NCBI GenBank assembly: GCA_947650285.1
Contig: CANTFL010001453.1
Location: 62,001 to 126,000 of the forward strand
Length of the DNA stretch: 64,000 bases
DNA from: Hyaloperonospora brassicae
Lineage: Eukaryota > Oomycota > Peronosporomycetes > Peronosporales > Peronosporaceae
Direction of reading: 5' to 3'
Part shown: in pieces, positions 1 through 6,590 of the stretch
Layout: every line of letters starts with the position of its first letter
Numbering within the stretch: position 1 is the first letter of the stretch
Position numbers and translations under genes: made by a program
Notes under the pieces: model-generated
Databases searched by the model: none
What the model was told of the DNA's origin: nothing
What the model saw: only the letters and a program-made list of their open reading frames with translations

Positions 1-736
1 AGGGATGTGTACTCCCTTAATTCGCCCTGGGGAAGGGCACACATCTCGGCTGAGATGCGTGACGCGATTGCAAACTTGCAATCCGTCTACAAGCGCCTAG
101 GGAGCGTGTTTACCGATGGGCCACAGGACTCATCGGATGGGTCTCGTCATACTGGCGGACGAGACCTTCAACATCCATCAACAGCTGAGAGCGGGCTCCC
201 AGCTGTTCCAAGAGGGTGGATACCCCCGCCACTGGACGAGGTAGCTCGTCCTTGATCCTGAATCGTCACGGTGATTCAAGATACGCTCCACTAGAAAGCG
301 TTGATCACCGTGAGCATCCACCAAAGGATGTGGTGGAGGAGGAAAGACCTCCTCCAGATGATTCGGTTCACCATCTCGACCCTTACGAGATGGATCGCGC
401 AATCGATGACTTGCGCGATGACTTGAAGCACGAGCGCGACCGGCACTACGCTTTGACTGATACCGTGCGGAAGAACCGCAAGGGTCACGAGGCTGATCGG
501 GCGAGGGATCGCGCCGATTATGCCACGGCGCAGCTTCAGGTCGAGCGGGATGTCCGCTCCATATTCGGCGAGCTGGCGACAGCTCGCGGGGGATATCTCG
601 GTTGAGTTCCGAGGTATCATATCTGCGCGACCAGACGGATCGTCTGGAGCGCGAACGCAAGGACTTGATGGATGTTCTTGAACGTGGGGGCTATCTTCAT
701 CGGAAGAAGAAGGCTCGTACTGACAGTACGATCTAA
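1..736 (+). pseudogene. Antisense accessory ORF of Gypsy copy 1 (C-terminal part, frameshifted)
   Basis: This is the plus-strand counterpart of the ORF described at 46532-48141. Homologous reading passes through three frames because of single-base deletions near 193 and 593. Visible content: RDAIANLQSVYKRLG, an acidic linker, then a charged heptad-like coiled coil (ERDRHYALTDTVRKNRK and LSSEVSYLRDQTDRLERERK) and a basic tail, HRKKKARTDST, ending at TAA 734-736. Copy 2 has TGA at the same codon. The N-terminal half lies off the window. I do not recognise the family. The region also encodes pol and the chromodomain on the minus strand. Confidence 0.6.
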
Positions 737-1599
737 GCCTCCCCACGTACAACGTAGGATGCGTGCGCATCCTACGTGGCAATTCGAGTGTGTATGCATT
801 GCCCTTGCGATGCAACACTCGAAATGGCCCAATGTACTTCGGCAGTAGTTTTCTACTGCCGACACTAGTGACTGCATATCCAAGTAAGTTTACCGTAGAC
901 AGTAGTACTAGGTCGTTAACTTTAAATGAAAGAACATTTGCTCTTCCATTCTTGTCTGCGTTCCGTTTCTGGCGGCCCACCGCATTTGCGATGGAGTCCT
1001 GAACGAAACGGACTACCGCTTCTCGAGTCAGCAGGAAGTTCTCTGCTGACTCTTTGTTTTGTCTTTCAGTGGGCTTGGTGCGCACTGCTAAGAGATTGCT
1101 CTCTTCTTCAGCGAGGTTGTCTTCTTCCTCGCTGGCATAATCGTTGACGATGCTGAATATACCAGCATCGTCATCATCATCCGAGTCAATAATAGCGTCA
1201 TCGCTATTATTGAGGTGATCTTCTTCATCGATGTCGACTTGATCGACATCGGCATCATACGTGACGACGTTAGCGTCGACACGTGATGAGCAAGAGCCAA
1301 AACGGGTTTTGCTCGAGCGAGTCCCCCCCCCTTATCCAAGAGTCACACTCTAGAAGGGTGGGCACTCGTGGATGGCGTAGGCCCTTTACGTAAAACGGTG
1401 TGTGCTGTGTTGAAGCATGCACCGAATTATTGATGGCGAATTTCACCATGGGTAGTAATTCGCTCCAACTCGGAAACGAGTGGACATATCCTCGAAGGAT
1501 CTCTTCGAGGACACGGTTCGCACGTTTCGTCGTCTGACCATCTGTTTCTGGATGGTCAGAAGTGAACATCTTCAATCGTGTTCCGAAAGTACGGAACAC
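178..1599 (-). pseudogene. pol: C-terminal integrase and chromodomain of Gypsy copy 1, in several frames
   Basis: Open pieces in succession carry the last part of the integrase core (HPETDGQTTKRANRVLEEI), an acidic/low-complexity linker with frame breaks (1090-1330), the GPY/F module (PKYIGPFRVLHRKGNAYTLE) and finally a chromodomain (FLVERILNHRDDSGSRTSYL then VQWRGYPPSWNSWEP), ending near 178. The usual catalytic Glu of the D,D-35-E triad, still present in copy 2 as QTER context, is here replaced by Thr-Lys through a 3-nt change, so integrase activity is probably lost. Chromodomains of this kind are thought to guide integration to modified histones. The last ~560 bases are also covered by the antisense ORF on the plus strand. 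Confidence 0.82.
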
Positions 1600-1605
1600 G
1601 GTTTG

Positions 1606-2709
1606 CTAAAATGCCGCCGTGAACCGAGGGTCACGGTCGGATACGAGTTCACGGGGTAACCCGTGGAGTCTAAAGACCGTGTCTAGAAAGACACGAGCAC
1701 AACCTTGAGCCTTGATCGACTCAGGGACTACAGCAAGATGGACCATCTTGCTGAATCGGTCAACAAACACAAGAATACCATTATTCTTGTGAGCGTCTTT
1801 GGGGAAACCGAAGACGAAGTCCATTGAAACGGACTGCCAGCACTCTGCCGGAACAGGTAGAGGCTGCGATGGCGCACGGGATGAAGGACTAGGCTTCATC
1901 CGTTGACAAACCTCGCAAGCACGTATGTACTTGCGTTCAATCTGATACTGGCGGGGCCAGTAAAAGTCACGACTTACCGTGAGGTAAGTCTTTTCTCTAC
2001 CACGATGGCCGCCTGTTGGTGCATCGTGACACTCATATATGATGCGTAAACGCAAATCATGATGAGCGGGGACGACGACACGAGGCGTGTCGTCGGCAAC
2101 AGCTGTATAGTACAGCAATCCGTTGCGTGTACTATACCAATCCGATGAGGATCGGCACAAAGCCGGTAAATCCCTCATGGATTTACTGGATGGATTCACC
2201 AGATGATCCATCAATCGCAGAAGATCCTTATCTTCCGCGTATGCCTTTCGTACGTCGTCAAGTAAACTTGACGATGGGACACTGACTGACAGTGTCGCAA
2301 CAGTGGGCTTATCCTCACTGTTGGATTGTGCGTCTGGCTCGAAATCGGGCCGGCGCGAAAGCGCATCCGCGACGAGGTTGAGTCGTCCCGGTTTATACTC
2401 CACGGAGAAGTTATACTCCTCGAAGAAAGACAGCCGCCTCGCCATTCTTTGCGAGAGGTGTGGGCTGTTTACGGCCGTGCGTAATGACGCATGGTCCGTG
2501 TAGACAACAAACGGTCTATCTCCCAAGAGATAGACGCGAAACTTAGCCAGTGCATATTTCATGGCAAGGAGTTCCTTGTCATGCACTGGGTAATTACGCT
2601 CAGCTGCTTGCAGCTGACGCGACTGATAACATATGACGCGCTCCGGGCCATCTGCATCGAACTGCATTAACGCACAGCCGATTGCGAAATCGCTGGCGTC
2701 ACAGACCAC
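1606..2709 (-). pseudogene. pol: RNase H plus N-terminal integrase of Gypsy copy 1 (open segment ending at a nonsense codon)
   Basis: This starts in the RNase H-like domain (VCDASDFAIGCALMQFDADG, YPVHDKELLAMKYAL, VYTDHASLRT). It continues to the integrase HHCC zinc domain (GGHRGREKTYLTVSRDFYWP, then CEVCQRMKPS) and the catalytic core with its first two acidic residues (SMDFVFGFPKD and LVSDRDPRFT). The frame stops at a TAG where copy 2 has TGG (Trp), a single-base nonsense change just before the third catalytic region. The upstream frame (RT) is displaced by an indel. This is therefore one part of a broken pol polyprotein. Confidence 0.88.
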
Positions 2710-5025: not shown

Positions 5026-6156
5026 TGGTCCGTCTCGCTGTTGCGGCTTCGCAACAGCGCTGGACCCACGCCCATTGCCCTTTCTGGCGAATGGTCGTCC
5101 ATTTCGCTCAGTACTGTTTGGTACTGGGCGTGGAGCACTACACTCATATGCGTAGTGCCCTAACTTCTGACAGCGATTGCACCTCTGCAATCGCTTGTTG
5201 TTTGTAGAGCGAGGTCTCTCGCTCTCAACATAGCAGAGTTCCATTGGTTCTGGACCTCCGATCTCTTGTCGTCTCGGTGGACGGTAAGAGTTTGAGCTAG
5301 CATGAGCCTGTCTCATGCTAAAGTCTTCCTGTTCCGCGGCTGATATCGCTTCTTCGAGCGTATTCAGCTCAAGGCGGAACAGATGGCTCCTGACGGGCCC
5401 TTCTGCGAGCCCTTGCATGAACACCGTAATCAACGTGTGTTCATGAACTGGGTTGGCAGTTATACTACTTGCAAGGAGTCGTATATGTTGTGCGTAAGCG
5501 TGCACATCACGCTTACCCTGCTTGAGTTTCAGGAGCTCTGAACGAGCCCTGAACTCAGCACGTGGCGGCTCAAACGTTTGTCTGAGCCGGGACTTGAAGT
5601 CATCTAGCGACCTAAACACATTTGGGTCGCTACTCTCGAGTCCCAGGGACCAAGTTTTGGCACGCCCTGCCAAGTGGGTCTGAGCAAATATGAGTTTCAT
5701 TTGCTCATCTTCGACGCGACGAGCCCTTAGGGCTCTGTCGAGTTCGACAAACCATAGTAACAGGGAGTCCTCCGGGACTCCACTGTACTTGGAGATGTCA
5801 ACTTTCATGACTTCGGGACGACGCGCATGCGCCGTCCCGCCCACAGCAGCATGGAATTGCTGCTGTCTCAACAGCTCCGTCTGTTGAGCACCGAGTTCTC
5901 TCAACTGCTCGGCCTGTTGAGAGCCTTGCTGGTGAAGCAAGGCTACTTTCTCCCTTACGGCGACAAGTTCATGTTGTATGAACTTGGCTATAGCGGCATG
6001 TTGTTGGTCTCTGTCTAGAGACTCCAACATGGCGCTAACGACGAGTTCGCCTACGGTAGAACTCATTCGTTCTACCGCACCCCATTCGATGTCACTCAAA
6101 TGGGTAAACCCTTCACGCGTGGCGTGAAAGGTCTCTTCATCATCCAACATGTTCAT
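5002..6156 (-). CDS. gag: Gag polyprotein of Gypsy copy 1
   Basis: This 384-residue ORF is intact. The N-terminal ~100 residues are rich in Gln, Glu and Leu and probably coiled-coil (a run of QQ-E-L spacing around residues 70-100). A retrotransposon Gag-type capsid region follows, including LLLWFVELDRAL and a sequence near WSLGLES that fits the Ty3/Gypsy capsid. Near the C-terminus is one CCHC zinc knuckle, CNRCQKLGHYAYEC, for RNA binding. The ORF ends at a TAG inside a stem-loop just after a slippery heptamer, so protease and RT are probably expressed by -1 frameshifting. A second Met lies two codons inside the first and could equally be the start. Expected role: capsid assembly of the virus-like particle. 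Confidence 0.9.
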   Translation of the reverse strand: MNMLDDEETFHATREGFTHLSDIEWGAVERMSSTVGELVVSAMLESLDRDQQHAAIAKFIQHELVAVREKVALLHQQGSQQAEQLRELGAQQTELLRQQQFHAAVGGTAHARRPEVMKVDISKYSGVPEDSLLLWFVELDRALRARRVEDEQMKLIFAQTHLAGRAKTWSLGLESSDPNVFRSLDDFKSRLRQTFEPPRAEFRARSELLKLKQGKRDVHAYAQHIRLLASSITANPVHEHTLITVFMQGLAEGPVRSHLFRLELNTLEEAISAAEQEDFSMRQAHASSNSYRPPRRQEIGGPEPMELCYVESERPRSTNNKRLQRCNRCQKLGHYAYECSAPRPVPNSTERNGRPFARKGNGRGSSAVAKPQQRDGPSKNGRGQ

Positions 6157-6201
6157 GTTGGATGATTGTGGTCCTTGGAAGGACTACAAAGTGCTACCAG
6201 G

Positions 6202-6590
6202 TGTAACGGGGCACACCCTTGCGTAACTTAACGCAAGGGATTTGGGTGCCCCGACGGACGTACATGTGGCAAGCAAGGAAGCGTAGGTAGGGTAAAAGTA
6301 GAACTGTTATATTAATAAATTAAGTCTTTAAACTACTGTCTCTTCGTTTGACTTAATTCAATTATACTAATATAACTGCATGTATGGTGACGTCTCGTCA
6401 CCACTCATTGCGCGCGTCTTGCGGCGATTGGTGGGTTGATATCATCACGATATCAGCCAATGAACAGACCCTTTGGTCGACCCTTCAATATCACCACTTG
6501 GTGATATTGTTTAAAGAATATCCATCTTTATATTCTTTATTGTCACTTTCCTTAAAGTGACAATTTCATGTAACGGGCTGCCCCGTTACA
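6202..6590 (-). repeat. 5' LTR of Gypsy copy 1
   Basis: The 389-bp LTR begins TGTAACGGGGC and ends GCCCCGTTACA, a perfect 11-bp terminal inverted repeat with the usual TG...CA ends. It aligns with the LTRs at 46006-46400 and 53599-53992. Almost all of its right half is consecutive hairpins: 6385-6403, 6437-6455, 6486-6509, 6512-6539, 6539-6564 and 6569-6590. At its left end a nested pair of stems spans 6208-6252 (outer GGGGCAC/GTGCCCC, inner CCCTTGCGT/ACGCAAGGG). The bases right of the LTR are gttgc. The partner target duplication is outside the window. Confidence 0.93.

What the first reader, a model, noticed from the sequence alone, without database searches (positions are those of the whole stretch)
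1..6590. Gypsy element built along its whole length from short perfect inverted repeats
Seen directly: on either strand, gag, protease, RT, integrase and linker DNA are a near-continuous series of perfect hairpins. In 4320-4737 alone there are nine stems of 7 bp or more with loops of 12 nt or less: 4320-4340 (8 bp), 4358-4373 (7), 4391-4417 (11), 4507-4534 (14), 4574-4600 (9), 4609-4631 (8), 4638-4662 (10), 4674-4701 (10), 4718-4737 (7). With equal bases and ten allowed loop lengths, chance predicts about 0.25 stems of 7 bp in 418 bases. Stems ignore codon phase, yet RT and protease motifs survive. I did not notice comparable density in adjacent host exons. Copy 2 shows the same, including its antisense ORF (46589-46608, 46623-46643, 46646-46668, 46705-46726, 46739-46766). 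Inference: selection for a globally structured genomic RNA (comparable to the genome-scale ordered RNA structure described for some persistent RNA viruses), or a mutational process such as template switching that keeps creating palindromes.
Basis: partly seen in the sequence, partly recalled or inferred. Interest (0 to 1): 0.88.

Follow-up and report, generated by a model that had tools for sequence, protein, structure and literature searches.

The report
Retrotransposon packed with hairpins throughout
A family of Ty3/Gypsy retrotransposons in a probable downy-mildew genome is packed from end to end with short perfect hairpins, which inherited silent mutations spare on both strands, so folding itself is likely under selection, perhaps to escape the host's RNA interference.

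Summary
All 14 listed stems are perfect. Copy 1 has 104 perfect hairpins (stem 7 or more, loop 0-12) in 6,590 bases, against 3.6 in dinucleotide shuffles; host genes and the LINE sit near background. Keeping protein and codon usage does not remove it: a related copy has 65 hairpins against 3.5 and folds at z -22 (sense) and -25 (antisense). The host is an oomycete, probably Hyaloperonospora brassicae. All 30 family copies fetched show it; sister families have fewer stems, mostly elsewhere, and one has miniature 13-nt hairpins. Substitutions private to one copy hit stems at the neutral rate; synonymous ones shared by three or more copies break pairs less than half as often as expected and cost little folding energy on either strand. 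G-U is tolerated no better than A-C, and differences are not concentrated in one arm. I conclude selection for local folding of both strands, not sense-RNA structure alone and not simple template switching. RNAi evasion is my inferred reason, untested. Mismatch repair by the reverse transcriptase is the main rival.

The parts
1..6590 (-). Copy 1 of the Ty3/Gypsy family, running on beyond the left edge (its other LTR lies at C861:60609-61000, outside the window); 104 perfect hairpins here
6199..6590 (-). LTR of copy 1; its last hairpin (6569-6590) ends on the LTR's last base
   Evidence: 85% identity to the LTR of copy 2; hairpin list
5002..6156 (-). gag frame of copy 1
   Evidence: Retrotrans_gag E 4.8e-16
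4214..4951 (-). Protease frame of copy 1; overlaps most of the stretch with nine listed stems
   Evidence: RVP_2 E 3.2e-9; stems
2757..4196 (-). Reverse transcriptase frame of copy 1; folds at z -25.6 sense, -30.3 antisense against codon shuffles
   Evidence: RVT_1 E 2.7e-25
1606..2709 (-). RNase H and integrase frame of copy 1
   Evidence: RT_RNaseH, Integrase_H2C2 and weak rve
291..1085 (-). Integrase C-terminal frame of copy 1
   Evidence: SH3_Tf2-1 E 4.5e-12
4320..4737 (.).
   Evidence: shuffle mean 0.30, max 3 of 2,000
46003..53992 (-). Copy 2 of the same family with both LTRs; 93 perfect hairpins, more decayed than copy 1
46003..46400 (-). 3' LTR of copy 2
   Evidence: 97.5% identical to the other LTR
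53596..53992 (-). 5' LTR of copy 2
46715..47833 (+). Antisense open frame (372 aa) between pol and the 3' LTR; the matching frame in another copy is open over 538 codons and holds 19 hairpins against 1.4 in codon shuffles
   Evidence: no Pfam match

Best explanation
This is a Ty3/Gypsy retrotransposon family whose LTRs, pol and antisense frame alike are packed with short perfect hairpins, and because synonymous substitutions shared by several copies spare pairing and folding energy on both strands, natural selection likely keeps both strands folded, which would protect its transcripts from the host's RNA interference. Shown: the density, its independence of protein and codon usage, its presence in all 30 copies fetched, neutral decay in single copies, and the sparing by shared synonymous substitutions. 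Inferred: that this sparing is selection and not repair of mismatches by the reverse transcriptase. Inferred and untested: the purpose. Sense and antisense RNAs that each fold at once into stems of 7-14 bp would anneal poorly into long dsRNA, be poor Dicer substrates and poor targets. A G-U wobble on one strand is an A-C mismatch on the other, so only Watson-Crick pairs fold both strands, which is the pattern seen. The conserved antisense open frame gives a reason for antisense RNA to exist; that it is transcribed is not shown.
For: Codon-shuffle control: 65 vs 3.5 hairpins. Folding z -21.9 sense and -25.3 antisense. Synonymous substitutions in stems: 86 of 294 private, 19 of 77 in two copies, 17 of 110 in three or more (last vs first p 0.005). 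Pairs broken by synonymous changes in three or more copies: 15 vs 37.7 expected; private 100 vs 103.8. Mean energy cost of synonymous changes falls from 1.39/1.49 to 0.26/0.10 kcal/mol, sense/antisense, p 3e-10 and 5e-10; outside perfect stems from 0.81/0.72 to 0.27/-0.05, p 8e-4 and 3e-4. One-mismatch stems of L013: G-U 13, A-C 13, other 8 of 34. G-C clamps at stem bases in 3 of 4 families. Phytophthora infestans small RNAs map along abundant Gypsy elements in both orientations (passages of PMC3522703). Conserved antisense frame.
Against: No small-RNA, transcript or structure-probing data were available. 21-mers of the element self-fold only modestly more than codon shuffles (0.36 vs 0.26 of windows at -3 kcal/mol or lower). 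Families differ in hairpin size (modal span 23 vs 13 nt), which RNAi evasion does not predict by itself. Private synonymous changes gained pairs 0 times against 10.4 expected, unexplained; nonsynonymous changes in three or more copies broke pairs 13 times against 16.5 expected, no clear sparing; non-coding changes in two copies fell in stems 8 of 21 times. Four distant Gypsy loci in the same genome show no excess of hairpins. Mismatch repair by the reverse transcriptase would explain much of the sparing inside stems.
Confidence: 0.45

Rival explanations
1. Hairpin-directed repair during reverse transcription: the family's own reverse transcriptase corrects mismatches in fold-back structures (quasipalindrome correction), so stems ripen and stay perfect without any benefit, and each family's enzyme would set its hairpin size.
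For: Perfect Watson-Crick stems with sharp ends, strand symmetry, family-specific spans of 23, 19-22 and 13 nt, trait limited to one RT clade of those sampled, stem GC of the L013 frame not raised, decay in single copies.
Against: No excess of differences in one arm (5 comparisons); gains above 2 sd of simulation in only 1 of 12 focal copies; shared synonymous changes outside perfect stems are also folding-friendly on both strands; G-C clamps at stem bases in 3 of 4 families.
Confidence: 0.25
2. Selection on the sense genomic RNA alone, as in genome-scale ordered RNA structure of persistent RNA viruses, for packaging, stability or hiding from sensors.
For: Very large folding-energy excess; shared synonymous sparing; stems not conserved in place between families, as I recall for such viruses.
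Against: Antisense strand at least as structured (z -25.3 vs -21.9) and equally spared; G-U equals A-C in one-mismatch stems, 13 to 13; shared in-stem changes G-U 19, A-C 22, where private ones are 94 and 65.
Confidence: 0.17
3. Selection on hairpins in single-stranded cDNA together with the RNA, for example to steer or protect reverse transcription.
For: Would give strand symmetry; hairpins cover the LTRs too.
Against: No direct evidence; four distant Gypsy loci in the same genome do without.
Confidence: 0.1
4. Chance, base composition, codon usage or an assembly artefact.
For: None found.
Against: Dinucleotide and codon shuffles; 30 of 30 family loci, on many contigs, show it; neighbouring host DNA is near background.
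Confidence: 0.01

Closest known systems
Ty3/Gypsy LTR retrotransposons of oomycetes (best named protein relatives in Peronospora effusa and Phytophthora)
   Same: LTRs, gag, protease, RT, RNase H and integrase in the Ty3 order
   Different: I saw no report of hairpins along the whole element. The oomycete Gypsy groups named in PMC5348765 (Chronos, Archon; passages) are defined by an extra RNase H, not tested here.
Genome-scale ordered RNA structure of persistent RNA viruses (recalled; one search gave listings only)
   Same: Whole-genome folding excess over composition-matched controls, without conserved individual pairs
   Different: A DNA-integrating retrotransposon, short perfect hairpins, equal on both strands, no G-U tolerance
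Yeast Ty3 and Ty1 genomic RNA structure (PMC11381356, abstract and one section)
   Same: A structured LTR-retrotransposon RNA
   Different: There a mosaic, with well-structured regions up to 30% of the RNA; here hairpins along the whole length
miRNA-like structures in maize transposable elements (PMC10760457, abstract and start of introduction)
   Same: Local structure in transposable elements linked to small RNAs
   Different: There structure goes with more small RNAs; here stems are 7-14 bp and I infer the opposite effect
Quasipalindrome template-switch mutation (PMC7202029, listing and start of abstract)
   Same: A process that acts on imperfect inverted repeats
   Different: Studied there in Escherichia coli; here along a whole element, without one-arm rewriting

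Membership tests
Ty3/Gypsy LTR retrotransposon | Two LTRs flanking the coding part | tested here: met
   Copy 2 LTRs 46003-46400 and 53596-53992, 97.5% identical
Ty3/Gypsy LTR retrotransposon | gag, then protease, RT, RNase H, integrase in this order | tested here: met
   copies in the window; L013, pol part
Genome-scale ordered RNA structure | Folding energy well below controls that keep protein and codons, along the genome | tested here: met
   Twelve 201-nt windows of L013 z -21.9; copy 1 RT frame z -25.6; gag not tested by folding
Genome-scale ordered RNA structure | A property of the sense RNA (G-U tolerated, antisense less structured) | tested here: not met
   Antisense z -25.3; G-U 13, A-C 13
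Genome-scale ordered RNA structure | Linked to persistence in an infected host | not testable with these tools
Quasipalindrome template-switch products | One arm rewritten to match the other | tested here: not met
   Sum of arm differences at or below control in 5 of 5 comparisons
Quasipalindrome template-switch products | Excess of mismatch-to-match changes | tested here: inconclusive
   Synonymous changes in three or more copies: 9 gains vs 4.3 expected; private 0 vs 10.4
RNAi-evading structured RNA | Fewer small RNAs or weaker targeting because of structure | not testable with these tools
   No small-RNA reads held; only passages on Phytophthora infestans

The most novel reading that the evidence does not exclude
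A clade of LTR retrotransposons has evolved a whole-genome, strand-symmetric hairpin armour: each family has shaped its codons, LTRs and antisense gene so that both RNA strands collapse into tandem hairpins of a family-specific size (about 23, 21 or 13 nt), making the element resistant to dsRNA formation and RNA interference. This would be a folding-based counter-defence written into the entire sequence instead of into a protein.
Probability: 0.35. Interest if true: 0.95.

Novelty: new variant of a known kind. Interest (0 to 1): 0.86.

Why it matters
If selection keeps both strands of a whole retrotransposon folded, codon choice in mobile elements can be a defence trait, and RNA interference may have left a visible mark on primary sequence. 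The genome also offers a natural experiment, with related families showing strong, medium, miniature and no hairpins, to test whether structure protects from small RNAs. If the cause is instead the reverse transcriptase repairing its own hairpins, that would be a new genome-shaping mutational process. Either answer is unusual and testable.

Tried and rejected
Chance and composition: rejected by dinucleotide and codon shuffles. dsDNA palindromes (dimer sites or inter-strand switching): complementarity at positions that would lie inside a 3-4 nt loop is not significantly above 25% (focal 16 of 49, L046 6 of 30, L054 25 of 78). One-event template switching: no arm asymmetry. Specific conserved RNA elements: few stems are shared between families (L046 to L042: 4 of 37 intact; L042 to L046: 5 of 22), and copy 1 against copy 2 shows 2 double compensations among 84 changed pairs. 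siRNA guides folding on themselves: only a modest excess in 21-mers. DNA of relatives in other species: the viral-contig scan found none and the plasmid collection only protein matches of 27-31% identity, so no other species' DNA was compared. Literature: searches listed no paper whose title or shown abstract describes such an element; most hits were seen as listings only. The peak at exactly 23 nt (26 of 132 focal hairpins) was not tested against a smooth distribution.
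Full report
WHAT IS THERE. The window holds two copies of one Ty3/Gypsy family on the minus strand. 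Copy 1 runs from beyond the left edge to 6590; copy 2 is 46003-53992, with LTRs of 398 and 397 bp that are 97.5% identical. The best named protein relatives are from Peronospora effusa and Phytophthora. Two Hyaloperonospora brassicae proteins found with the antisense frame lie on longest contigs of 542,547 and 248,241 bases, exactly the lengths of contigs C795 and C41 of this genome. The host is therefore probably H. brassicae, a downy mildew; this is inference. The genome search scored 89 matches to the RT frame, the query itself included, at 93-100% amino-acid identity, many with open frames of 1,339 codons or more (a capped, lower bound).

THE OBSERVATION. All 14 listed stems are perfect. 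Non-overlapping perfect hairpins (stem 7 or more, loop 0-12) number 15.8 and 11.6 per kb in the copies, 1.2 in the LINE, 0.8 and 1.3 in two host stretches, with shuffle means of 0.5-0.8 per kb. The density falls off at the element's end, and in another copy the first hairpin starts at the first base of the LTR, with none in the 1.5 kb before it; that LTR has 6 hairpins in 394 bp. Of the 30 family loci fetched, all show 12-20 hairpins per kb in every piece counted, except the last 434-base pieces of L010 and L011 (9 per kb); the eight RT loci fetched (L001-L008; L001 is a LINE by Pfam) have 0-3.

PROTEIN AND CODONS DO NOT EXPLAIN IT. With protein and codon usage kept, L013 has 65 hairpins in 1,264 codons against mean 3.5, max 7 of 50 shuffles. 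Twelve 201-nt windows of L013 sum to -1077 kcal/mol against -707 (sd 17, 15 shuffles) on the sense strand and -1027 against -666 (sd 14) on the antisense strand. The RT frame of copy 1 gives z -25.6 and -30.3; three host frames and one LINE frame lie between -2.1 and +1.2. In L013 stem registers favour those where third codon positions can be tuned (3-1 29, 3-2 25, 3-3 11 of 65), and with the antisense frame in its own phase 13 of 84 are 3-3, p 0.0003; L045, L046 and L042 show no clear bias (12 of 41, 9 of 37, 8 of 22).

A GRADED TRAIT OF ONE CLADE. The 20 further RT loci split as follows: 7 of the same family 10.6-16.6 hairpins per kb; 3 of a sister family (L044, L046, L047; 58-59% RT identity) 6.9-8.0; 2 of another (L042, L043; 59%) 4.0-4.9; 4 at 51-53% (L050, L054-L056) 0.9-1.4; 4 distant Gypsy-type loci (L039-L041, L051; 25-28%) 0.3-0.9. 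The L054 family is not unstructured: with stems of 5 or more it has 129 hairpins in 4.5 kb, 120 of them of 5-6 bp, modal span 13 nt (36, against 2.5 in shuffles), and it folds at z -8.3. The focal family's 132 hairpins have a modal span of 23 nt and stems of 7-14 bp; L046's are mostly 19-22 nt. A tree of 9 rows puts the four hairpin families and three database proteins (two named Phytophthora) apart from L040 and L051 with full support; the order inside is poorly resolved and the root is a midpoint. Few stems are shared between families: of 37 in L046, 4 are intact and 26 have three or more mismatches in L042 at 68% amino-acid identity, with 12 double compensations among 159 changed pairs. Each lineage has largely made its own hairpins.

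SELECTION OR MUTATION. Private substitutions (mostly decay after insertion) fall in stems as stem share predicts: 299 of 1,000 against 29.7% in a first set of 12 copies. With 37 copies against L013, synonymous substitutions in stems are 86 of 294 private, 19 of 77 in two copies, 17 of 110 in three or more (last vs first p 0.005); nonsynonymous 212 of 666, 10 of 76, 13 of 49. Private synonymous changes broke pairs 100 times against 103.8 expected; those in three or more copies 15 against 37.7, and gained 9 against 4.3. The mean energy cost of synonymous changes fell from 1.39/1.49 kcal/mol (sense/antisense, private) to 0.26/0.10 (three or more copies), and outside perfect stems from 0.81/0.72 (n 170) to 0.27/-0.05 (n 73). 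This is what purifying selection on folding, independent of the protein, would leave. Results that do not fit neatly: private synonymous changes gained pairs 0 times where 10.4 were expected; nonsynonymous changes in three or more copies broke pairs 13 times against 16.5 expected; non-coding changes in two copies fell in stems 8 of 21 times. L013 is the reference and belongs to the youngest group; the private class, scored in the same way, is the control.

BOTH STRANDS. In single-mismatch stems of L013, 13 mismatches are G-U, 13 A-C and 8 other (a stricter count gave 2, 4 and 5 of 11). Shared in-stem changes give 19 G-U and 22 A-C, private ones 94 and 65. If only the sense RNA mattered, G-U should be the better tolerated. 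Complementarity is not significantly extended into positions that cannot pair in a hairpin, and stem bases are G-C clamped in three of four families, so the property looks like hairpin folding. Arm-by-arm differences show no one-sided rewriting.

MECHANISM. The best reading is selection for local self-folding of both strands. The purpose is inferred. In Phytophthora infestans, small RNAs of 21 and 25/26 nt map mostly to transposable elements, predominantly LTR retrotransposons, and along its two most abundant Gypsy elements in both orientations (passages of PMC3522703). Sense and antisense RNAs that fold at once would resist annealing and targeting; stems of at most 14 bp are shorter than what I recall Dicer needs. 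The element carries a conserved antisense frame (81.5% identity between two copies, dN 0.098, dS 0.170; relatives named H. arabidopsidis and H. brassicae), so antisense RNA is expected but not shown. The strongest rival is mismatch repair in hairpins by the element's reverse transcriptase; it would explain perfect stems and family-specific sizes, but not as readily the folding-friendly changes outside stems or the clamps.

VERDICT. Interest is high because the signal is very large, has internal controls, and was not found described in the searches made.

Noticed in passing
window 20372-44500: Tandem array of 17 signal recognition particle (7SL-type) RNA genes on the minus strand, one per 1,466-1,468-bp unit, 16 of them nearly identical in score.
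   Followed up: partly
window 46715-47833 (+) and L061:2397-3509 (-): Conserved antisense open frame between pol and the 3' LTR, without Pfam match; one Hyaloperonospora arabidopsidis relative is labelled 'Core-binding (CB) domain-containing' by its source.
   Followed up: partly
L054, L050, L055, L056: A Gypsy family at 51-53% RT identity with miniature hairpins of modal span 13 nt instead of long ones; 5-mer complementarity at gaps of 9-15 is at or below codon shuffles there.
   Followed up: partly
37 family copies against L013: Private synonymous changes gained pairs 0 times of 294 where 10.4 were expected, while private nonsynonymous ones gained 40 against 31.4; unexplained.
   Followed up: partly
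window 54124-54514: A fragment 79% identical to the internal stretch next to the LTR of copy 1 (5812-6202) lies outside the 5' LTR of copy 2, perhaps the remnant of an older relative.
   Followed up: no
window 58795-63133: LINE with endonuclease and reverse transcriptase split over two overlapping frames, the break falling inside the RT domain; no excess of hairpins.
   Followed up: partly
window 17258-17331: tRNA-Arg (CCG) gene on the minus strand.
   Followed up: no
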